Positions 11,994 through 21,885 of a DNA stretch of 64,000 bases are shown here, in pieces. The stretch spans positions 2,023,501 through 2,087,500 of the forward strand of contig NC_023035.1 of assembly GCF_000507245.1 (NCBI RefSeq). Direction: 5' to 3'. The notes under the pieces were generated by a model. It saw only the letters and a program-made list of their open reading frames with translations. It did not search any database and was not told the origin of the DNA. A program made the translations under genes and the position numbers. How positions within the stretch are numbered: position 1 is the stretch's first letter; every line of letters starts with the position of its first letter. This DNA comes from Salinispira pacifica. GTDB taxonomy: Bacteria; Spirochaetota; Spirochaetia; DSM-27196; Salinispiraceae.

Positions 11994-12021
11994 AAACGGC
12001 AGACCCGAAGGCCTGCCGTTT
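11994..12021 (-). terminator. Strong terminator behind flaA
   Basis: A 12-bp stem (AAACGGCAGGCC paired with GGTCTGCCGTTT, one G-U pair) closes a TTCG tetraloop and runs into TTTTATAG on the minus strand, 30 bp after the flaA stop. It insulates the divergently placed che promoter region from flaA transcription. Confidence 0.8.
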
Positions 12022-12050: not shown

Positions 12051-13067
12051 TTACTGCTGCTCTTCCTCAGCTTCACGCTCAGCGGGATTGTCCATTTTCT
12101 GGCTTTCGAGATAGCGCAGAACCTGGAGGTTACCAAGGCGTTCAACTTCAGCGTTTCGCCGTGATTCTTCACGCTGCTGAAGAATACCCCAGATAGCTTC
12201 ATCATCAATGTCCCGTTCGAGGGTAAGAACGGCTTTGTCATACACAACGCTTACATCTTTAATGTAGGTTACGAAGTCGCCGCCTTCCTGTGCCGCATCA
12301 CGATACACCCGGAAACCCACAAGCTTAACCATTGGGGCAAGTTTGGGATAAAGGGGATAAGTGCGGAGTTCACGGTTCCGTACTTCTTCGATATACGCAG
12401 GGTTACTCCATGTCATGGTTCTCCAACCGTCGAAGTCAAGATAACCCAGGAAATATTCCCGTTCACGATTTTCATGATCCTGAAGAATCACACTGAGGCC
12501 CTGGGGAAAATTCAGGCCGTGTACGTTTACAGAAATGCTTTTTACAACTGCAACATTCTTCAGAACACCGTATCCGTCAAACTGTTCGCCCCGGCCCTGA
12601 TCGGCGGGATCAACACTGAGGGTACCATCGGCGTTTACTGTTTTCACATCAGAATAAGCCGGGATTTCGAAAGGAGGCTGAACAATACCCCATGCATTGA
12701 AGGGTTCGGTGGGAAAATGGATCCGCACACCGAGAGTTGTTTCGCCGGGATACTGTACCGCATCATCCCGAACGGGTGCTGCAGCTGTGTATGATCTGGA
12801 CTGGTTTTCAACAGAACGTGCCGAAGAGTTCAGAATAACTTCCCAGTTTTCTACATAAAGTGAAGTTTTCATCTGAGCCTTTTCTTCTTCTGTGAAACTT
12901 GACCCTGCAGCAGTGCTGAAGTCTATCAGTGTAGCTTCATTCTGTGCGGGATTATCAGCAGGATAATCCGCAGTCAGGGTGTTAAAATCAATGAGTGTCG
13001 CTTCCTCGGCAAACACGAATGTGCCTGCGATTATTGCTACCAGAATAAGAATGAAGAACCTTTTCAT
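12051..13067 (-). CDS. flaA: Flagellar filament outer layer (sheath) protein FlaA
   Basis: FlaA coats the FlaB core of spirochaete periplasmic flagella. The 338-aa precursor has a typical signal peptide (MKRFFILILVAIIAGTFVFA, cleavage before EEATL). The mature part matches FlaA in layout: TLGVRIHFPTEPFNAWGIVQ, then VAVVKSISVNVHGLNFPQGL, then GYLDFDGWRTMTWSNPAYI, and a charged C-terminus. The motif EATLIDF occurs twice close together near the mature N-terminus (EEATLIDFNTL, NEATLIDFSTA). I place the start at 13067, because AAAGGAG lies six bases upstream; an in-frame TTG seven codons earlier lacks one. It has its own promoter and terminator. Confidence 0.93.
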   Translation of the reverse strand: MKRFFILILVAIIAGTFVFAEEATLIDFNTLTADYPADNPAQNEATLIDFSTAAGSSFTEEEKAQMKTSLYVENWEVILNSSARSVENQSRSYTAAAPVRDDAVQYPGETTLGVRIHFPTEPFNAWGIVQPPFEIPAYSDVKTVNADGTLSVDPADQGRGEQFDGYGVLKNVAVVKSISVNVHGLNFPQGLSVILQDHENREREYFLGYLDFDGWRTMTWSNPAYIEEVRNRELRTYPLYPKLAPMVKLVGFRVYRDAAQEGGDFVTYIKDVSVVYDKAVLTLERDIDDEAIWGILQQREESRRNAEVERLGNLQVLRYLESQKMDNPAEREAEEEQQ

Positions 13068-13116
13068 TCTGCGCTCCTTTATTTTCAAGCCTTATTCGAT
13101 GTACTCGCTATATCAA

Positions 13117-13144
13117 ATTATATCTATACCCAATTCTTTGTCAA
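13117..13144 (-). promoter_or_regulatory. Consensus sigma70 promoter of flaA
   Basis: Both hexamers match the sigma70 consensus perfectly (TTGACA at 13139-13144, TATAAT at 13117-13122 on the minus strand) with a 16-bp spacer, about 50 bp upstream of the flaA start. This predicts high, housekeeping-type expression, unlike sigma28-driven flagellin genes. Confidence 0.8.
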
Positions 13145-13206
13145 ATCTTTTTACTGAATTCCCGGGACTTCATGGAAAAATCATGAATAAACCCCCCAAG
13201 TGTCCG

Positions 13207-13713
13207 CTATTCGGCGGCTGCAGGCAGGGAATACGGCGGTATAAAGGGCTCCTGACCATCCAGCAGAAATACTACCCGGCGTACCGCAGGAAAGTTGGAT
13301 GTAATACCGTTCTCAAGAATAGAAAAGGATTCTTGAAGAGTAAGATCCTTACCGGGTATCCGTTTCATGGCATTCCTGTCCAGATCCACCACCAGCTCAC
13401 CGCCTCCGGGAAGGAACAGGGAACGCAGGGAAGTGTCCCTCTGGAAGATATGATAGTTTCGAATATTGGCGGGCCCGAGAATGCATTCTTCCACGTACTG
13501 GGCGATCCGGTCACGCCGCCCCCTCTCCCTGGGAAGGGTGCGGTACTCGGCGATTATTTTTCCCTCCACGGAATCGGGAAAATACAGAATCACCTTCTCC
13601 CGGCGGAAATTTGAAACACCGTACAACAGCGCAGAGAGAAAAAACACTGCGACAATCATCATGAGCCATTTATGATCTTTAAAAAGACTGTTTTTTAATT
13701 TACTGAGATACAC
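13207..13713 (-). CDS. Membrane-anchored GerMN-domain protein
   Basis: The 168-aa protein has an N-terminal transmembrane segment (about residues 16-33) and an extracytoplasmic domain resembling GerMN: KVILYFPDSVEGKIIAEYR, then a line like VEECILGPANIRNYHIFQRD, then ELVVDLDRNAMKRIPG and SILENGITSNFPAVRRVVFL. GerMN domains often occur beside cell-wall amidases. Here the gene overlaps the amidase gene by 14 bp, so the pair probably acts together in peptidoglycan remodelling. The exact molecular role of GerMN is not settled. Confidence 0.8.
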   Translation of the reverse strand: MYLSKLKNSLFKDHKWLMMIVAVFFLSALLYGVSNFRREKVILYFPDSVEGKIIAEYRTLPRERGRRDRIAQYVEECILGPANIRNYHIFQRDTSLRSLFLPGGGELVVDLDRNAMKRIPGKDLTLQESFSILENGITSNFPAVRRVVFLLDGQEPFIPPYSLPAAAE

Positions 13714-14743
13714 TTTCGAAATCCTGAATAAAGTCGGTTATCCCATTATAAATTCCCTTGCTGATGTTCTGCAAGTAGAGAGGGTTGTTCAGCAGTTCAA
13801 CCTCTTCAGGATTTGTGACAAAACCCACTTCAACCAGCACCGAAGGCATATGGGCTTTTCGGACAACGTACCAGTCCATTTCCTTCAAACCCCTGGAGCG
13901 GGTGTACCCTCCCAGCTCGGCCATCATTCCCCGCTCGATATTCTGGGCAAGAATGATGCTCTCCACCGTGTACTCTTCCTCAAGAATGCTGTTCAGGATG
14001 GGAAGCACCGATGAATTTTCCGAATCCACGTCGTCCGGCTCCAGCAGCTGTCGGCGGTATTCCGGCGGCAGGTACCACACCTCAATACCTTTGGCCCTGG
14101 AATTCAGGGCGGCATTGGCATGAATGCTGATAAAGACGATTTTTTCATCCGGTCCGCTGCTCAGTCCGTTTGCCAGTGCGGTTCGCTGCTCAAGGGTGAG
14201 ATACCTGTCGTCTTCCCTGGAGATTACAATCTCCTTGCCGGGATAGCGGTCTCCCAGACGCCGGGCGAGATCTCTGGCAACTTCCATTACGATATGCTTT
14301 TCGTAGATCGGTTCTCCGCTGGCAAGGGTACCGATGGTCCCCGGATCCTTGCCTCCGTGTCCGGGATCGATAAATATTGTGGATATTTCCCGGGTATCGG
14401 CGGATTCCGGCCTGACAAACAGAGCCTGTATCCGGTCTGCGGTGCTGTCGGGAAAATAGAGGGTGCCGTCCTGAAAATACGGCGGACTGATTACCGATGT
14501 ATTGAGAAAGTTATGGGTCATCAGAGGAACCTCCGGCATGAAGGTGAGCACCTCATCACCCCGCCATATCATTCCTCGGTTAAGAATATCGTCCCAGTAC
14601 AGGTCAAGTTCATTTTCCTTCAGCAGCCCCTCCAGAGAGATATCACCATGAATCGGAACAGCGGCCAGAAGAAAACACAGCAGCCCCGCCTTGAGTACAA
14701 CGGAGAAAAATCGATTTTTGACCTGTGCTGTTTTCACTTCCAA
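13700..14743 (-). CDS. N-acetylmuramoyl-L-alanine amidase (Amidase_3 family)
   Basis: The enzyme cleaves the lactyl-amide bond between MurNAc and the peptide stem. The zinc site is visible: His in FIDPGHGGKDPGT, Glu in the EKHIVMEVARDLA helix, His in FISIHANAALNSRAKGIE, and the C-terminal VLVEVGFVTNPEEVELL. I place the start at the TTG at 14743. The upstream gene stops at 14745, an AGGAG lies six bases before this TTG, and a signal peptide follows at once (FFSVVLKAGLLCFLLAAVPIHG). The ATG at 14797 is the alternative; it lacks a good Shine-Dalgarno and would lie inside the upstream gene. The region between signal peptide and catalytic domain (about 80 aa) is unassigned. Confidence 0.88.
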   Translation of the reverse strand: MEVKTAQVKNRFFSVVLKAGLLCFLLAAVPIHGDISLEGLLKENELDLYWDDILNRGMIWRGDEVLTFMPEVPLMTHNFLNTSVISPPYFQDGTLYFPDSTADRIQALFVRPESADTREISTIFIDPGHGGKDPGTIGTLASGEPIYEKHIVMEVARDLARRLGDRYPGKEIVISREDDRYLTLEQRTALANGLSSGPDEKIVFISIHANAALNSRAKGIEVWYLPPEYRRQLLEPDDVDSENSSVLPILNSILEEEYTVESIILAQNIERGMMAELGGYTRSRGLKEMDWYVVRKAHMPSVLVEVGFVTNPEEVELLNNPLYLQNISKGIYNGITDFIQDFESVSQ

Positions 14744-14744
14744 C

Positions 14745-16540
14745 TCACTCTCCTGAGAGTGCACTGTACTCTTGAATGATATTCCGGATCGCTTCATCTC
14801 TACTAATGTCGGTAGAATTGTGATGATTTTGAGAGTTCTCTGCTTCAAGATAGTAGCATAATCCCTGATATCCGGCTCTAAGCAGGCAAAACAGCATTTC
14901 CGGGTTATCCCCGGCGCTACCGCCGGCTGCCCATGAGAAATCCTGATGTATGCGGCGGGTATCCCGGAGAGATTGAGACAAACTTCGGTAGTTCCAATCC
15001 TGTTCCCCATACTCCAGATAGGCCTGCGGAATTGTAAACTCATCGACTTTCCGGTAGCTGTCTTCACTGATTAGCCGGTCTGAATCTAGGGACAGGGCGG
15101 CATAATCCTTCAGGAACAGCGACATCAGACGGGGATATGCCGGGGGAAAATCGCTTCCCAGAATATGCTGCAGCCGGGAAGGTTTTACCGGGGCAAGCCT
15201 GAAAAGGTAGGCTGCGACACCTGCTTCAGCCCGCTGAGCGGAGGTCGCTCCTCCTGAACCCTGCTCTTCCCGGCAGATAATGTTGCCGCATTTTTCCACA
15301 TTATTTCTGGGGAACCTCAGTTCGTCCCCTGACCTGACGGTAATAAAATGGAATTCCCCCGCCTCCTCCCGGGATCCCGGAGCGGCACCGGCGGGAATAA
15401 TCCTGCGGTCGAAAATCACATCCTTCAGCGTACCGGGAATGGATACCATGCCCCGTTCAGACACCCCGATACGGCTCTGCGGAGTAAAATACTCTTCATA
15501 CTTCCCTGGGTTCTCACCCAGGGCAATGAGCACGGCACCCACTGCTGGGTGAACCCCGCTGTGAAGAGGATATGTCCATCCCGACATGTAGCCTCCCGAA
15601 AGGCGTGCGGCAACTTCGCCGATCACCGGGCCCCGTTCTGTCATGAAAACATCCCCTTTGGCTGCCCCCCTGCTGATGCCCAGGGCGGCGGCGGCCCGGA
15701 AGAGGGTGTCAAACATTTCATGGGCGGACTCTTCACTGAGACCGCTGGGAAAATCATGACCCCGCTCAATATAATATGGAGGATAATCGATGCTTCGCCG
15801 TGCAATACCCATGGGCATGGCTGTATCATCTGAAATAAGCGAGTCAAGACTGTACTCTACGCCCCGGATCTCCTCTTCCAGCACCAGGGTCAGTCCGGGG
15901 GAATAGCGCAGCGCCTCCGCGGCAGCGGGGCCGAGCTCCCGGGGCCCGGAAATTTTCCGTACACCCCGGGCACCCATGTTATCTCCGGGCTTCACCACCA
16001 GTGGATACTCCAGCCCTTCCCGGCTGATCTTTTCCAGCAGTACTTCAGCAGGCTTTTCGGGGTACCGGAGGTCTTCGGCCCCTGGGGTGAGGGATACGAA
16101 GCCGGGACAGGGAATTTGATGTTCCCGGAGTACCTTGCGCATGCGGTCCTTCCTGCTGGCGTTCAGAGCGGCTTCATAGGAGATTCCCGGAAGATTGTGA
16201 GCCTGGGCCACCCATGCCACCGAGGCTGAAAAATCGGTGCCCACCGTGAGCACGCCATCCAGACCTCCCCGGTCCCGAATATCAGCTGCTGCAGCGGTGA
16301 GTCCCGGTAAATCCTTCAGGTCGATATGATAAAACCCGCTGGAGCTTCCGGCACCGGGAGCATCTGCATTGCCGTCGGCAATGAACAGCTGTATGCCCAT
16401 GGCCTGGGCAATATGGATTGCCGGCAGTTGCATGGTGTTGGCCCCAGAAACAGCATCCGCCGGCCTCCGGGGGACTGAGCCTTCCACGATTCAATAAAAG
16501 ATCTGGTACGGGCGTTAAGAGCAAGATCAGGATGATACAT
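14745..16540 (-). pseudogene. ATP-grasp carboxylate-amine ligase-like protein, interrupted by a one-base frameshift
   Basis: ATP-grasp enzymes join a carboxylate to an amine or thiol through an acyl phosphate. The long frame (stop at 14745) has the ATP-grasp core: YPLVVKPGDNMGARGVRKI, VLEEEIRGVEYSLDSLI, and VIGEVAARLSGGYMSGW. Its N-terminus lies in another frame. From an ATG at 16540 (GAGG five bases upstream) one reads residues ending in GGRRMLFLG; adding one G to the GGGG run (plus-strand C4 at 16442-16445) joins this to ANTMQLPAIHIAQAMGIQL, a normal first strand and helix. The true product would be about 598 aa. It sits in the sugar/cell-wall operon, 17 bp behind the PseG-like fusion gene. 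A homopolymer sequencing error is as likely as a real mutation. Confidence 0.75.
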
Positions 16541-16557
16541 AAAAACCTCACAGGCTG

Positions 16558-18450
16558 TTATTCTTGTTCGGGAATATTGATGAAATAGGCTTCAAAACTG
16601 TCGCCTAAATCCATGGCACGGCTGGCTGCCATGCTCAGCCCCTTCAACCAGGGTAATGAAAAGGGAGAAGGAAAGCGCTCGGGGTGATGCCCGGTGGAGC
16701 GGCTTTCTGCAAGCATGAAACTGTAAAATCTGCCCAGCTCATCGGCCTGCCGGGGATTCCACACACTGTAATGATCCTCAGGTCCATTCTGAAGAAATGC
16801 GGAAAGATTCATGCGTCCGCTGATTCCCCGGTTGCTGGGGGTGGAAATTGCAAAAATCCCCCAGGGCTTCAATATCTTCCGAATCCAGCCAAGAATGTCT
16901 CCCAATTCGGGAAAATGTTCAATCACATACCACATGGTAACCGCAGAAAACTGATTTTCGCCGAAGCTGTTCCGGAATTCGGGATCTGAGATATCACCGC
17001 TTTGGGCGGGAATCTGTAACACAGAGTTCACATACTCAACGGCGTCGGGGCTGATATCTATGCCGCTGCACAAAAACCCCGCCTCCCGGGCCGCCTGGAG
17101 AAATGGACCGTAGGCGCAGCCGATATCCAGGATTGAAGGCTGTTCTTCCCCTGGGTGCAGCTGCTTCTGAATATGCTTCAGCCGCTCTTCGCCCATGCTT
17201 TTGATATGCTGAAAGTCCTCAATATAGGTTTTCCCGTACTGCTCCCTGTACTGGCTGAAAAAATAGCTCTCATCGTAGGTAAAACTGTCGGATGTTACAC
17301 GGAAAAGATACACCGTACCGCAGCGGGAGCATGCCGAATAGCTGCGGTTCCTGGAGCGGGATATAATAGGGTTCGGTCCCATGTTGCCGCAGCAGGGGCA
17401 GCAGGAGTTACCATGGGGACGGATGCTGCGGATGGTCTCTCCCAGGGATGATGCAGGAATTGCGGCAACCCGGTCAGCCTGGGATCTGAGCTGTTCCCTG
17501 AGCGCAGGAAACCTGAGCTGGTCCGCTGCGGTTTCAAGGCTGTCCGGAGGGACTGAGAGAAAGCCCGAAAGTACCGAAAGCCTGCGATGATAATCCGAGG
17601 CGTCCAGAATCAGAACAGGCAACCCGCTGAACTGGGCCTCCCAGGCGCTGAGACCGTAGGCACAGATCAACAGGTCATATCGGGGAAAACGGGTGCTGAG
17701 ATCATCCACCGGTTCCATCCAGCTCCAGCCCCGTGGAAGATCCGGGAGAGCGCTGTCCTTCAGTCTGCGGGGATAAATTATGCTTCCTGTGACCGAGCGC
17801 AGGAATTCATGTGTCTGGAGAAGGTTCACAAAACTCCGGGTGAGATTTCCCGGATCGCTTCCTCCGAAGCTTACCAGAATGTTTTCCAATCCCTGTTCTT
17901 CACTCTTCCGGTCAGCTGAACGGCGAACAGAGGTATTTTCCGAACCCGCTGGTTTGGGCCGGAGTAATCCGGGATCGTAGAAGTTCGCTGCTTCCCCGTT
18001 GACGAAGGATGACAGCGCCCCCAGGCCCGGGATTCGGGGAAGCGACGGATATGAGGCCTTTCCGTTCCCGAAGTACTTTCTGTGATGCCGGGTCCCGGGG
18101 TATGGGAGGGTGTCCAGAAGATAATCGGCGTAGCTGCGCCCTTCCCCGCCGAGATCCACCGCCACAACCGGTGCCCGCTCCTTCAGTTTCATCAGATATG
18201 AATATTCAATTTCCGGCATATCTATGACATACAGTTCCGGCGCCGGAAGATTCGGCTCTTCCAGGTCACCGATGCTTCTGCACTCTTTCAGCTCAGGAAA
18301 CTGCTTCTGAAGATTCTCCTGCATTGTGTGTGGAATATACAGCAGGGAGTTTTCCAGTTCCATATGCAGGCGGATCATCCGGGCAAGATGACCGCTACCG
18401 TTGCGAAGCTCCAGAGCAGGGATGAGAATTACGCCGTTGGTCTGTTCCAT
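16558..18450 (-). CDS. PseG-like glycosyl hydrolase/transferase fused to a SAM methyltransferase
   Basis: The N-terminal half (about residues 1-345) has the GT-B-like pattern of PseG, which removes UDP in nonulosonic acid synthesis: GSGHLARMIRLHMEL near the start, VAVDLGGEGRSYADYLLDT in the middle, then NILVSFGGSDPGNLTR and YDLLICAYGLSAWEAQFSGLP. A four-Cys zinc-ribbon-like linker (CPCCGN ... CSRCGT, about 350-378) leads to a class I methyltransferase (ILDIGCAYGPFLQAAREAG, SAVTMWYVIEHFPE, LKPWGIFAISTPSNRG). The 630-aa fusion lies 2 bp behind the SpsF-like gene. Together they suggest synthesis and modification of an activated sugar. The substrate is unknown. Confidence 0.75.
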   Translation of the reverse strand: MEQTNGVILIPALELRNGSGHLARMIRLHMELENSLLYIPHTMQENLQKQFPELKECRSIGDLEEPNLPAPELYVIDMPEIEYSYLMKLKERAPVVAVDLGGEGRSYADYLLDTLPYPGTRHHRKYFGNGKASYPSLPRIPGLGALSSFVNGEAANFYDPGLLRPKPAGSENTSVRRSADRKSEEQGLENILVSFGGSDPGNLTRSFVNLLQTHEFLRSVTGSIIYPRRLKDSALPDLPRGWSWMEPVDDLSTRFPRYDLLICAYGLSAWEAQFSGLPVLILDASDYHRRLSVLSGFLSVPPDSLETAADQLRFPALREQLRSQADRVAAIPASSLGETIRSIRPHGNSCCPCCGNMGPNPIISRSRNRSYSACSRCGTVYLFRVTSDSFTYDESYFFSQYREQYGKTYIEDFQHIKSMGEERLKHIQKQLHPGEEQPSILDIGCAYGPFLQAAREAGFLCSGIDISPDAVEYVNSVLQIPAQSGDISDPEFRNSFGENQFSAVTMWYVIEHFPELGDILGWIRKILKPWGIFAISTPSNRGISGRMNLSAFLQNGPEDHYSVWNPRQADELGRFYSFMLAESRSTGHHPERFPSPFSLPWLKGLSMAASRAMDLGDSFEAYFINIPEQE

Positions 18451-18452
18451 GT

Positions 18453-19211
18453 TCAGACCGCCAGTGTATAGATGTTTTTGAGAATGGAAGGGAGGTCCGG
18501 CAGAGAATCCATATCCTGGTTTCGGAACAGACCGGCGAGATAGCGATAATCCTCCCGGGTATCCAAAGTGAGCCGAAGGTCGGCTCCCTGAAATTCACGG
18601 GGAGCCGCCAGAGTGCGTATGTGGAACTTGTGAGGATGTTTGTAGATATACGGACACACATGCTCGTGATCATAGGGATCCACCGAGTCAATAAAGGCCT
18701 GCTCAAGGGCTTCAGAGCTCACGCATTCAACCCCGCAGCCGTATGGTATGCCGCTGTGGGCCAGGTAATCAGGGAGCCTGCTGCCGGAGTTTCGGGGAAC
18801 TCCCGTGTTGGAAGTTCTCTCGGTCTTCCCGGGCTCGTCAGCTCCGCGGTACTCGAGTAACAGATTAGCCAGTCGAAAGCTTACCAGCGGATTATCGGCG
18901 GTGGCGCGAATGATGGTATCCACCGCAAAATGCCTGGCCGCAAATACATACCTGGCCAGAACATCCTCGGCGGGGCCCTCAAAACATTCCCAGCCGGGAA
19001 CTGAACTGCAGATTTTATTGAGAACCGGGTAACTGTGGCTGTCGGTGAGCACTGCATGAACGTCTGCATGTACCAGAGACAGCCGGCGCATGGCATGCTC
19101 CAGGACTGTACGGCCCTGCAGGTCCAGAAGTATTTTATGAGGCAGCCGGCTTGAACCCAGGCGGGCCTGGAGAAAAACTCCGCTGCGACGATTCAGAGTA
19201 TCAGAAAACAT
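18453..19211 (-). CDS. SpsF-like cytidylyltransferase / NTP-transferase family protein
   Basis: The 252-aa protein opens with VFLQARLGSSRLPHKILLDL, the signature of the SpsF/NeuA-like nucleotidyltransferases, and continues with GPAEDVLARYVFAARHFAVD and IIRATADNPLVSF, which match the FRGSEDDVL and RITxDCPL motifs of the family. Such enzymes activate acidic sugars as CMP derivatives. It overlaps the upstream gene by 11 bp and is 2 bp from the downstream PseG-like fusion, so it belongs to the same operon. SpsF annotations also occur in Treponema, where the product is unknown. Confidence 0.82.
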   Translation of the reverse strand: MFSDTLNRRSGVFLQARLGSSRLPHKILLDLQGRTVLEHAMRRLSLVHADVHAVLTDSHSYPVLNKICSSVPGWECFEGPAEDVLARYVFAARHFAVDTIIRATADNPLVSFRLANLLLEYRGADEPGKTERTSNTGVPRNSGSRLPDYLAHSGIPYGCGVECVSSEALEQAFIDSVDPYDHEHVCPYIYKHPHKFHIRTLAAPREFQGADLRLTLDTREDYRYLAGLFRNQDMDSLPDLPSILKNIYTLAV

Positions 19212-20217
19212 GGTTTTCTCCCCATAATTCTATCATTTGACGGGCATCCCAGCGATAGTTATAGCGGTGTTGGCGAACCCATCTGCGCAGCCGCCTGAAT
19301 TGATCCAGAGCCTGGAAAAAGTTGATTCTCCCGGCCCGGTAAAACTGCCAGAATTTCCCCACAGGAAGTTCCGCCCGATCACCGGTGTACCTCACCGCCA
19401 GAGTTTTCACATAAAACCTCAGGTAATCCTCGTCGGGAGTACTCTCCTCCGGCGAGATAGCCTCAAGATACTGAAAGCGCAGGGAATTCAGGGAAACAAA
19501 GCGCTCCCCCCAGAGCCTGCTGCGGAATCCGAACTCAAGCTTTTGCCAGTGCTGATTTGTCAGCTCCTCGTCGTAGCCGCCGCTTCTGATGAACCGCTGC
19601 CGGTTATATACCCCGCAGTAGTCGGCTGCAAGAAGGCTCTCATGTTCCCTGCCGTCGGGAAGAATGCCCAGGGGCTCCCGAAAGGTGATGCTCTTCATGG
19701 AAGGACTGCCGGCGGGTACAAAGAGGCTGGGAACCGGATTGCCTTTTGAATCCTTTAAAAGAGGCAGAAAACAGAGTACAGAGGGATCCAGTCCGCTGAC
19801 GGCAGCGGCGGAAAGGTGAAGCTCCATATCGTTCCAGATAACACAGACAAGATCCCGTTTCGCCTCGCCCATGCTGATATTGATAAGACTCCCCACAGAC
19901 GCCGTGCCATAGTACATTTCCCGGGGAAAGAGAATTATCCGCAGATGGGGAAACTCAGATGTGAGATCATCCAGCGGAAGGGAAGCATCACGGGGCATGA
20001 CCACGATGGTGTCTGCGATTTTTTTCGCCGCCAGGCGGCGGATATCTTCCACACGCTGATATTTCCGTCCGCGGATCAGCTGTATTACGGAAATATTCAC
20101 ATCCATGTGACTGTCCCGGCCCGCAGGCCCCCGGCCCAGCACGGTGTAATTTCTCGACGTGTTAAAAGTTGAAGGTATACCACTCATCACATTTTCGGCA
20201 CACTTCCGGCAGATCAT
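19201..20217 (-). CDS. Glycosyltransferase-like protein (uncertain)
   Basis: This protein of up to 338 aa has alternating beta/alpha segments like a GT-A glycosyltransferase: ADTIVVMPRDASLPLDDL, DLVCVIWNDMELHL (a DxE near a DxD position), RSGGYDEELTNQHWQKLEFG (compare the FDE motif of GT2 acceptor sites) and a basic C-terminus. No clear family match is visible. The start is uncertain: the frame is open to 20217, which overlaps the upstream gene by 56 bp, and a start near 20142 (GTG) or 20106 (ATG) would remove most of the overlap. It lies within the sugar operon. Confidence 0.6.
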   Translation of the reverse strand: MICRKCAENVMSGIPSTFNTSRNYTVLGRGPAGRDSHMDVNISVIQLIRGRKYQRVEDIRRLAAKKIADTIVVMPRDASLPLDDLTSEFPHLRIILFPREMYYGTASVGSLINISMGEAKRDLVCVIWNDMELHLSAAAVSGLDPSVLCFLPLLKDSKGNPVPSLFVPAGSPSMKSITFREPLGILPDGREHESLLAADYCGVYNRQRFIRSGGYDEELTNQHWQKLEFGFRSRLWGERFVSLNSLRFQYLEAISPEESTPDEDYLRFYVKTLAVRYTGDRAELPVGKFWQFYRAGRINFFQALDQFRRLRRWVRQHRYNYRWDARQMIELWGENHVF

Positions 20218-21841
20218 CTTCCAGATGCCGGAGATACAGATGCCTGCCTGCCTCCCATATGCTGTTCATATTGTCGGTATACACATTGCCGAAATTGAAT
20301 GTTTCCTCTCCGGGTATGAGAGCATGATTCGGGCAGGCAAACACCTCACCATCCAGTCTGATGTATAGTTCCCGCTTCAGATGCCAGCATTCATGACGGT
20401 TCAGCGGAGACAGATCCGTCACCTTCCGGTCAGGAAGAGTTTGAGAAAAATCGTTGTATTTCTGGATAATCACCTCCACATCCCTTCCCTTCCAGTGATT
20501 ATAGAAATTCATGAGATGCTCTTCATTATCCTTCATCCGCACAGCCTGAACATACAAACCGCAATTCAGTTCACGAATGCACAGATCGATGAATCCCATT
20601 GCCTCTTCATAGCCGCTGCCTCTCAGGGCTGCATAGAGCTGAGGGTCCACGGCGTCCAGACAGACGATGAGATTCACGGATTCCCGGGGCAGCCCGTTAA
20701 GAGCTTCCACGGCCCGGGGGGTCCACCCGATACCCGAAGTTTCAATGACAAACGATACTTTATCGGTATATTCGGCGGCAGCGGAAAGAATCCCGGGGAA
20801 GTCCCGGTGAAGTGCCGGTTCGTTCCGGGCGCCTAATGTGATCACCGGATCTTCCACAAGCTTCACAATTGAATCCAGAATGCTGCGGAAGTTCTTCACG
20901 CTCACATCTTCGGCGGCCGCCGTAGGGTCACCCGCAGAAGCGTCGCTCTCCGGTACGGAGTCATTACCGCCGGATGGGAGATACGAGGGATGCTGCCTCC
21001 GGCTTCCGCTTATTTCAAGCATGATGTGGGCAGGGAGGCTGCGGTAGGCGCTGCGGTTTTCTTCAATTACCGCGCACAGATCTTCAGCCGTGGTGTGCTC
21101 ATTCAGGAAGGGGCTCAGGGAATCGCAGATCAGCGAATTCAGGGTTCGATCCCGATAGAGCTCAAGTCTGAGCATCCGCAGATCCGCCGGGGATACCACG
21201 GTTTCAATATCGTATGCGTTAATATCCTTAAGAATCACGTTGAAAAACCCGTCCCGTGTTGCCGGAAGCTCTCCGGCATCCTGAATCAGCTTGGGAAATA
21301 TCTCCCTGCTCACCAGAACCCCGGAAACTCCGCCGGGAAACCCTTCGGCAAACACATATTCGCTCAGGTAGGTTTCATGAAGCCCGAGAATCTCCGAGTT
21401 CACCTGGAGGTTCAGAAAGGCTGCGTCCGCCCAGAAATGAAAAACCGCCGGGGGCAGCTCTTCGCTTTCCGGGGAATAGCCCTCCCCGACGTGATGCTCC
21501 ATGGTCTTGAGAAGTGAGCTCATGGGAGCCTTTTTCCCCGTATGCCGTCCGGCAGCCTCATTTTCGGCTGTGCCGGGTATTGGAGCCGTTTTTACACTCA
21601 ATCCGTCAATGGTGGAAATAAGCGTTTCAAATTCGGTAATTTCCGCCTGTTCCCTGGAGCTCCGGATTTCTTCCGGCGAGACAATAAGGATGAGACGGGG
21701 GTGAACCGAATCATGGCTCTCCACAAAGCGCCGGAGGAATGTAGCCAGCTTCTGTAAATGCGCCGTGTCCAGTTTCACGGTTCGGGGATGGGAAAAGTTT
21801 ACAACGGGGAAGACCCTCTGAGACGGGCCGGAGTTTTTCAT
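20162..21841 (-). CDS. Spiro-SPASM protein: radical-SAM/SPASM-like protein lacking the CxxxCxxC motif
   Basis: The first ~270 residues contain a nucleotidyltransferase-like stretch (PPAVFHFWADAAFLN, YLSEYVFAEGFPGGVSGVLV). The second half reads like a radical SAM barrel (LPAHIMLEISGS, VITLGARNEPALHRDFPGIL, VSFVIETSGIGW, VNLIVCLDAVDPQLY) with a C-terminal SPASM-like Cys set (HECWH, FACPNH, EVCRKCDEW). Where radical SAM enzymes carry CxxxCxxC, this protein reads GSRRQHPSY, without any Cys, so an active 4Fe-4S/SAM centre is unlikely. The family is, as far as I recall, restricted to spirochaetes. It is the first gene of the sugar/cell-wall operon. ATG at 21841 follows AAGGAAGG. Confidence 0.75.
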   Translation of the reverse strand: MKNSGPSQRVFPVVNFSHPRTVKLDTAHLQKLATFLRRFVESHDSVHPRLILIVSPEEIRSSREQAEITEFETLISTIDGLSVKTAPIPGTAENEAAGRHTGKKAPMSSLLKTMEHHVGEGYSPESEELPPAVFHFWADAAFLNLQVNSEILGLHETYLSEYVFAEGFPGGVSGVLVSREIFPKLIQDAGELPATRDGFFNVILKDINAYDIETVVSPADLRMLRLELYRDRTLNSLICDSLSPFLNEHTTAEDLCAVIEENRSAYRSLPAHIMLEISGSRRQHPSYLPSGGNDSVPESDASAGDPTAAAEDVSVKNFRSILDSIVKLVEDPVITLGARNEPALHRDFPGILSAAAEYTDKVSFVIETSGIGWTPRAVEALNGLPRESVNLIVCLDAVDPQLYAALRGSGYEEAMGFIDLCIRELNCGLYVQAVRMKDNEEHLMNFYNHWKGRDVEVIIQKYNDFSQTLPDRKVTDLSPLNRHECWHLKRELYIRLDGEVFACPNHALIPGEETFNFGNVYTDNMNSIWEAGRHLYLRHLEDDLPEVCRKCDEWYTFNF

Positions 21842-21885
21842 CACAGACCTTCCTTAGTCCAAAATTCACAGTGATTGAAGGATGA

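What the first reader, a model, noticed from the sequence alone, without database searches (positions are those of the whole stretch)
13700..21841. Seven-gene operon for an unknown activated sugar and envelope modification
Spiro-SPASM protein, glycosyltransferase-like protein, SpsF-like cytidylyltransferase, PseG-like/methyltransferase fusion, ATP-grasp ligase, wall amidase and GerMN protein are packed with overlaps or gaps of at most 17 bp. SpsF + PseG-like + ATP-grasp suggests a CMP-sugar (nonulosonate-like) pathway with a methyl group and an amide-linked substituent. flaA lies directly behind, and flagellins of some treponemes carry an unusual glycan, so flagellar glycosylation is one possibility; a wall-linked polymer is another.
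Basis: inference. Interest (0 to 1): 0.62.

Follow-up and report, generated by a model that had tools for sequence, protein, structure and literature searches.

The report
Spirochaete flagellin sugar pathway genes
Several of these genes look like the shared spirochaete recipe for the unusual sugar placed on the flagellar core protein, found in almost every motile spirochaete examined except the Borrelia-like ones, while the neighbouring glycosyltransferase and wall genes are a separate unit.

Summary
The cluster is real and its order conserved: 12 of 39 other spirochaete loci carry the whole block from spiro-SPASM to flaA, and 33 of 39 keep spiro-SPASM beside SpsF/PseG-like genes. The proposed single seven-gene pathway does not hold; the block is two modules. 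Spiro-SPASM, methyltransferase and ATP-grasp (with SpsF and PseG-like genes beside them) track the Maf flagellin transferase and NeuB across 247 genomes: near-universal in 224 flagellated non-Borrelia-like genomes, absent from 16 Borrelia-like and 7 aflagellate ones. The glycosyltransferase, amidase and GerMN genes persist without that module there. Best reading: the module makes a CMP-pseudaminate-type sugar bearing an O-methylated acyl amide, which Maf puts on FlaB core flagellin, not FlaA. Outside class Spirochaetia the ATP-grasp is fused to an FMN 2-hydroxyacid dehydrogenase, and a T. pallidum-sized genome has that enzyme close downstream of SpsF-PseG-methyltransferase; this matches the methoxy-hydroxyacyl group I recall for the T. 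denticola glycan. Spiro-SPASM is an SpsF-like domain fused to a radical-SAM/SPASM core whose AdoMet-cluster cysteines are lost here. The window's ATP-grasp gene has an apparent frameshift. All chemistry is inferred.

The parts
20162..21844 (-). spiro-SPASM protein (560 aa): N-terminal degenerate SpsF-like domain (about aa 105-245), radical-SAM-like barrel without CX3CX2C, SPASM domain with its four conserved Cys
   Evidence: TIGR04321 417 bits; PF13186; N-domain against SpsF hhalign 99.5%, E 4e-22; motif survey; AF2 pTM 0.81 with best PDB matches SuiB, SkfB, anSME
19201..20184 (-). GT-A-fold glycosyltransferase; conserved start ATG 20184 overlaps the last 23 bp of spiro-SPASM
   Evidence: No family hit; AF2 pLDDT 84, best PDB matches polypeptide GalNAc-transferases; orthologues throughout class Spirochaetia including Borrelia-like genomes
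18453..19211 (-). SpsF-like cytidylyltransferase (putative CMP-nonulosonate synthetase)
   Evidence: PF02348 E 5.5e-19; PDB 6oew cytidylyltransferase E 2.5e-21 with the ARxGSxRLPxK loop intact
17416..18450 (-). SpsG/PseG-like domain (putative UDP-sugar hydrolase), GSGH..R motif intact
   Evidence: TIGR03590 32 bits, below its cut-off of 153.55; invariant G18, G20, H21, R24, D77, D99, E271, H288 in 16 homologues
16558..17415 (-). SAM-dependent methyltransferase domain, fused to the PseG-like domain
   Evidence: PF13489 E 9.6e-19; same phylum-wide profile as Maf
14745..16540 (-). ATP-grasp amide ligase; apparent frameshift at the GGGG run 16445-16442
   Evidence: PF13535, PF02655; nearest solved relatives 4dim and L-amino-acid ligase 3vot; frames; 217 of 247 genomes
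13700..14743 (-). Exported N-acetylmuramoyl-L-alanine amidase (Amidase_3), TTG start after a 1-nt gap
   Evidence: PF01520 E 3e-45; start read from the sequence
13207..13713 (-). GerMN-domain protein, GTG start, overlaps the amidase by 14 nt
   Evidence: PF10646 E 1.4e-6
13117..13144 (-). Consensus sigma-70 promoter in front of flaA (TTGACA-16-TATAAT)
   Evidence: 12 of 12 matches
12051..13067 (-). flaA, flagellar sheath protein; adjacent, with its own promoter-like site
   Evidence: PF04620 E 1.8e-79
11994..12021 (-). Terminator-like hairpin behind flaA
   Evidence: 12-bp stem

Best explanation
The spiro-SPASM, SpsF, PseG-like/methyltransferase and ATP-grasp genes are the spirochaete-specific part of a CMP-nonulosonate pathway that glycosylates the FlaB core flagellins. 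PseB and PseC (elsewhere in the genome) turn UDP-GlcNAc into a 4-amino sugar. The methyltransferase and the ATP-grasp ligase, helped in other lineages by an FMN 2-hydroxyacid dehydrogenase, attach an O-methylated hydroxyacyl group to the free amine. The PseG-like domain removes UDP, NeuB (elsewhere) condenses the product with PEP, SpsF activates it with CTP, and Maf proteins transfer it to FlaB. Shown: gene content, gene order, fusions and co-distribution. Inferred: every catalytic step, the order of steps, the acyl structure, and the role of spiro-SPASM (probably a scaffold or regulator here, since its nucleotidyltransferase loop and its AdoMet-cluster cysteines are both lost). The glycosyltransferase, amidase and GerMN genes are a separate envelope unit.
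For: Co-distribution over 247 spirochaete genomes, of which 224 are flagellated and not Borrelia-like, 16 are Borrelia-like and flagellated, and 7 lack flagellin. Maf 224/224, 0/16, 0/7; spiro-SPASM 221/224, 0/16, 0/7 apart from one sub-threshold hit; ATP-grasp 217/224, 0, 0; methyltransferase 217/224, 0, 0; NeuB 218/224, 0/16. A 1.14-Mb T. pallidum-sized genome keeps exactly one NeuB and one PseB-type dehydratase, plus spiro-SPASM, a SpsF-PseG-methyltransferase fusion, ATP-grasp and four Maf. Fusions: SpsF+PseG+methyltransferase in Treponema-like genomes, SpsF+PseG in family f17, ATP-grasp+FMN_dh outside Spirochaetia (E 4e-66); a homologue of that FMN_dh lies close behind SpsF-PseG-methyltransferase in the T. 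pallidum-sized genome. Spirochaete FlaB proteins carry a 450.2-Da glycan needed for filament assembly in T. denticola (PMC9481697) and apparent glycans on Ser/Thr of Leptospira FlaB1 (PMC13144727). SpsG and SpsF act in the B. subtilis legionaminate pathway (PMC7439481).
Against: The profile rests on few independent losses (at least two: the Borrelia-like family, and the aflagellate families f9 and f11), so co-loss by genome reduction is not excluded. The PseG-like domain is far below the PseG equivalog cut-off and no solved PseG came up. The window genome has no clear FMN_dh; its best hit is a 479-aa IMPDH-sized protein at E 2e-14. The window genome also holds a second NeuB with its own PF02348 cytidylyltransferase, so SpsF is not its only candidate CMP-nonulosonate synthetase. 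The T. denticola acyl structure is recalled from memory (Kurniyati 2017, not held).
Confidence: 0.74

Rival explanations
1. The SpsF/PseG/ATP-grasp genes make a CMP-sugar for a surface or wall polymer, and the amidase next door works with it.
For: Adjacency to a wall amidase and GerMN gene; the window genome has another NeuB/cytidylyltransferase locus among polysaccharide-type genes.
Against: The nonulosonate genes disappear where Maf disappears while walls remain; a T. pallidum-sized reduced genome keeps them, and T. pallidum has no LPS (general knowledge); Borrelia-like and f9 genomes keep GT-amidase-GerMN without them.
Confidence: 0.12
2. The seven genes form one pathway, with the GT-like protein as the transferase that puts the sugar on flagellin or on the wall, as first proposed.
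For: Twelve of 39 other loci keep the complete order including the GT, and the GT start is embedded in the spiro-SPASM 3' end, suggesting translational coupling.
Against: The GT persists in all 16 Borrelia-like genomes and in 6 of 7 aflagellate genomes that lack the module and Maf; Maf already supplies the flagellin transferase; outside class Spirochaetia the spiro-SPASM/SpsF/PseG core occurs without the GT.
Confidence: 0.07
3. Methyltransferase, ATP-grasp and spiro-SPASM modify a flagellar protein directly (for example methylation or an amino-acid tag) in parallel with an ordinary CMP-Pse pathway.
For: The ATP-grasp is close to L-amino-acid ligases, and SPASM proteins often act on peptides (SuiB, SkfB, anSME).
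Against: The methyltransferase is fused to PseG-like and SpsF domains, which ties it to sugar chemistry; the FMN_dh fusion points to a 2-hydroxy/2-keto acid and not an amino acid.
Confidence: 0.1

Closest known systems
CMP-pseudaminate pathway for flagellin (PseB, PseC, PseH, PseG, PseI, PseF) with Maf, as in Helicobacter, Campylobacter and Aeromonas
   Same: PseB-type dehydratase, PseC-type DegT aminotransferase, PseG-like domain, NeuB, a PF02348 cytidylyltransferase and Maf are all present.
   Different: SpsF in place of PseF; PseG-like domain fused to a methyltransferase; ATP-grasp ligase (fused to FMN_dh outside Spirochaetia) as putative acyl installer; a dedicated SpsF-like/SPASM protein; genes dispersed. 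PseH was not tested.
Bacillus subtilis sps legionaminate pathway (SpsM, C, D, G, E, F)
   Same: SpsF- and SpsG-type proteins serve one nonulosonate pathway (PMC7439481).
   Different: No methyltransferase, ATP-grasp or SPASM component in the pathway proposed there; the product goes to the spore surface and not to flagellin.
Treponema denticola FlaB 450.2-Da glycan
   Same: A flagellin sugar in a spirochaete group that carries this module; as I recall it (Kurniyati 2017, abstract from memory) a Pse-type sugar with a 2-methoxy-4,5,6-trihydroxyhexanoyl amide, matching methyltransferase + ligase.
   Different: I found no paper in the held library that assigns these genes to it; the window species' own glycan is unknown.
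Radical-SAM/SPASM enzymes (SuiB, SkfB, anSME)
   Same: Predicted fold and SPASM cysteines.
   Different: AdoMet-cluster CX3CX2C lost in the window protein; extra N-terminal SpsF-like domain.

Membership tests
spiro-SPASM (TIGR04321) | Score above curated cut-off of 250 bits | tested here: met
   417.2 bits
Radical SAM enzyme | CX3CX2C AdoMet [4Fe-4S] motif | tested here: not met
   Replaced by SRRQHPSYLP in the window; motif present in 84 of 152 homologue sequences, lost in 68
SPASM domain (PF13186) | Four cluster-binding Cys | tested here: met
   Kept in 149-150 of 152 sequences; Pfam hit in the window protein
PF02348 cytidylyltransferase / SpsF | Score above cut-off and nucleotide-binding loop ARxGSxRLPxK | tested here: met
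   69.3 bits against 22.6; LQARLGSSRLPHK
PseG equivalog (TIGR03590) | Score above 153.55 bits | tested here: not met
   32 bits only; G-x-GH..R motif conserved
NeuB-dependent CMP-nonulosonate pathway | NeuB, PseB-type dehydratase and PseC-type aminotransferase in the same genome | tested here: met
   NeuB+SAF at G000:2365153, PF02719 at 1131337, PF01041 next to it
NeuB-dependent CMP-nonulosonate pathway | PseH-type N-acetyltransferase, or its replacement by the ATP-grasp ligase | not tested
   No search for PseH was run; ATP-grasp as replacement is inference
Flagellin nonulosonate glycosylation | Maf-family transferase (PF01973) in the genome | tested here: met
   4 matches in the window genome; 224 of 224 flagellated non-Borrelia-like genomes
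Flagellin nonulosonate glycosylation | Sugar present on FlaB | not testable with these tools
   Needs mass spectrometry
N-acetylmuramoyl-L-alanine amidase (PF01520) | Score above cut-off | tested here: met
   154.8 bits against 27

The most novel reading that the evidence does not exclude
Spirochaetes use a distinct nonulosonate pathway in which an FMN 2-hydroxyacid dehydrogenase, an O-methyltransferase and an ATP-grasp ligase build and attach a methylated hydroxyacyl amide to the sugar, organised by a SpsF-like/SPASM protein that in many lineages has lost its nucleotidyltransferase loop and its AdoMet cluster while keeping the SPASM cluster, i.e. an iron-sulphur scaffold derived from two enzymes.
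Probability: 0.4. Interest if true: 0.72.

Novelty: new variant of a known kind. Interest (0 to 1): 0.6.

Why it matters
Flagellar glycosylation is required for filament assembly in T. denticola (PMC9481697) and appears to link sheath and core in Leptospira (PMC13144727), but I found no paper assigning the genes phylum-wide. This work names a testable gene set (spiro-SPASM, SpsF, PseG-like, methyltransferase, ATP-grasp, FMN_dh, NeuB, PseB/C, Maf), proposes a function for proteins kept even in a T. pallidum-sized genome, and makes Borrelia-like spirochaetes a natural comparison group: flagellated but without any of it. It also corrects the idea that the GT, amidase and GerMN genes belong to the same pathway.

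Tried and rejected
Considered that the absence of NeuB from the cluster would exclude a nonulosonate; rejected because NeuB, PseB and PseC are elsewhere in the genome. Took the GT-like protein as the flagellin sugar transferase; rejected after it turned up in Borrelia-like and aflagellate genomes. Suspected that the first SpsF/spiro-SPASM cross-hits (about 70-150 bits) were inflated because the iterated profile had absorbed spiro-SPASM; a clean SpsF profile gave some hit in 37 of 39 with filters off, best 36 bits but the window only -1.6 bits, and the profile-profile comparison gave 99.5%, so the homology stands for the family while the window copy alone is too degenerate to show it. The T. 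denticola glycan paper could not be read. PDB sequence searches with the GT and PseG-like profiles gave nothing useful. A first ATP-grasp alignment held divergent members and was remade. SpsF and PseG were followed by synteny only, not by their own phylum-wide search.
Full report
WHAT IS THERE. The window lies at 2,023,501-2,087,500 of a complete 3.78-Mb spirochaete genome. On the - strand the seven ORFs of the finding are present in the stated order. Families: spiro-SPASM (TIGR04321, 417 bits), a protein with no family hit (GT-like), PF02348 SpsF-like, PseG-like + Methyltransf_23, ATP-grasp, Amidase_3, Germane, followed by FlaA. Three refinements come from reading the sequence. (i) The GT starts at ATG 20184 inside the spiro-SPASM 3' end: the DNA for the conserved ending CDEWYTFNF* is read in another frame as MSGIPSTFN, and the same leader (MSTIPSTFN, MNTIPSIFN...) is seen in most homologues. 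(ii) The ATP-grasp start that gives the 17-bp gap (16540) is in a different frame from the body of the gene; the change falls at GGGG 16445-16442, a sequencing error or a recent frameshift. (iii) flaA has its own perfect sigma-70 site and a terminator-like hairpin, so it is a neighbour with probably separate transcription.

IS IT MORE THAN CHANCE. I fetched up to 20 kb around spiro-SPASM in 39 other spirochaete genomes and mapped the families with iterated profiles. Twelve of the 39 carry the whole block SPASM-GT-SpsF-PseG/MT-ATP-grasp-amidase-GerMN-FlaA, at about 30-40% identity to the window proteins. Treponema-like genomes fuse SpsF, PseG and methyltransferase into one protein of about 850 aa. 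Outside class Spirochaetia the usual unit is SPASM-SpsF-PseG; family f17 has SpsF and PseG fused. Six loci show spiro-SPASM without SpsF beside it (L045, L046, L061, L062, L063, L073; L062 is cut short).

THE TEST THAT SPLITS THE CLUSTER. For the 224 flagellated others / 16 Borrelia-like / 7 aflagellate the counts are: Maf (PF01973) 224/0/0; spiro-SPASM 221/0/0 apart from one aflagellate hit far below cut-off, with 201 above the curated cut-off; ATP-grasp 217/0/0 at E 1e-20; methyltransferase 217/0/0 at E 1e-25; NeuB 218/0/6, five of the six aflagellate hits weak and one strong. Most of the few missing cases are incomplete assemblies. The GT behaves differently: it is in all 16 Borrelia-like genomes and 6 of 7 aflagellate ones, and weak or absent outside the class. 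At those places GT-amidase-GerMN-flaA (L113), GT-amidase-GerMN (L114, L115) or GT-amidase (L116) stand without the other genes. So the block joins a nonulosonate module with a separate envelope module. The profile is strong but rests on few independent losses.

THE REST OF THE PATHWAY. In the window genome a NeuB with SAF domain lies at 2,365,153, and a PseB-type dehydratase at 1,131,337 has a PseC-type DegT aminotransferase beside it, behind a NusG-like gene and in front of three xanthine-dehydrogenase-like subunits; the dehydratase-aminotransferase-oxidoreductase order recurs in G056 (L096) and G130 (L122), where the second gene was placed by position and not by a family search. A second NeuB with its own PF02348 cytidylyltransferase at 3.39 Mb lies among polysaccharide-type genes and probably serves a surface sugar. 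G056 (1.14 Mb, T. pallidum-sized) has one NeuB, one PseB-type dehydratase, the fusion protein, ATP-grasp and four Maf: a near-minimal complete set.

CLUES TO THE CHEMISTRY. Outside Spirochaetia the ATP-grasp protein (about 750 aa) has a C-terminal FMN_dh domain (PF01070, E down to 4e-66). Stand-alone relatives of this domain occur in Treponema-like genomes, and in G056 one lies one gene downstream of SpsF-PseG-methyltransferase (L047:15341-16222; 35% identity to the L214 fused domain, E 2.5e-44). The window genome has no convincing copy. An FMN 2-hydroxyacid dehydrogenase, a methyltransferase and an amide-forming ATP-grasp ligase (closest solved relatives 4dim and L-amino-acid ligase 3vot) together fit making and attaching an O-methylated 2-hydroxyacyl group. 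From memory, the T. denticola FlaB glycan is a pseudaminate-type sugar with a 2-methoxy-4,5,6-trihydroxyhexanoyl amide (Kurniyati 2017; paper not held); the held literature confirms only the 450.2-Da mass and its need for filament assembly (PMC9481697). Wyss 1998 (title cited in PMC13144727) reports flagellins and not sheath proteins as glycosylated, so FlaB and not FlaA is the expected target. SpsG and SpsF roles are supported by the B. subtilis legionaminate work (PMC7439481).

SPIRO-SPASM. A clean SpsF profile against the spiro-SPASM N-domain gives 99.5% probability, E 4e-22, but the nucleotide-binding loop is not conserved. The C-terminal part models as a radical-SAM/SPASM fold (pTM 0.81; SuiB, SkfB, anSME). 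The AdoMet-cluster motif CX3CX2C is present in 84 of 152 homologue sequences and lost in 68, the window among them, while SPASM cysteines remain in 149-150 (the set includes some loci fetched twice). A scaffold or regulatory role is inferred for the window protein.

VERDICT. Observation confirmed; interpretation partly supported. Most likely a spirochaete variant of the CMP-nonulosonate flagellin pathway, beside a separate GT-amidase-GerMN envelope unit. All catalytic assignments are inferences; organism names for G-handles are mine.

Noticed in passing
window 16445-16442: GGGG run where the ATP-grasp reading frame changes: the conserved N-terminal glycine motif lies in a different frame from the rest, a sequencing error or a recent frameshift.
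   Followed up: partly
window 20162-20184: The GT N-terminus (MSGIPSTFN) is overprinted on the conserved spiro-SPASM C-terminus (CDEWYTFNF); the same leader is seen in most Spirochaetia homologues and is absent from the Borrelia-like GT.
   Followed up: partly
L113:7741-11373: Borrelia-like genome keeps GT-amidase-GerMN-flaA without any nonulosonate gene; function of this conserved GT is unknown.
   Followed up: no
L120:4242-11287, L096:4264-10589, L122:8486-13323: PseB and PseC genes are followed by xanthine-dehydrogenase-like genes (molybdopterin, FeS, FAD types), even in a T. pallidum-sized genome; possibly part of making the acyl group.
   Followed up: partly
L047:14438-16222: Behind SpsF-PseG-methyltransferase in the T. 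pallidum-sized genome: a HAD-like hydrolase (by sequence look only), then a stand-alone FMN_dh related to the domain fused to ATP-grasp in other spirochaetes.
   Followed up: yes
L086:9386-13347: Second NeuB and PF02348 cytidylyltransferase locus of the window genome at 3.39 Mb; the NeuB hit is split over two ORFs (13087-13347 and 12302-13093).
   Followed up: no
genomes searched: Spirochaetes mostly carry 3-4 Maf-family matches each, including the reduced T. pallidum-sized genome.
   Followed up: no
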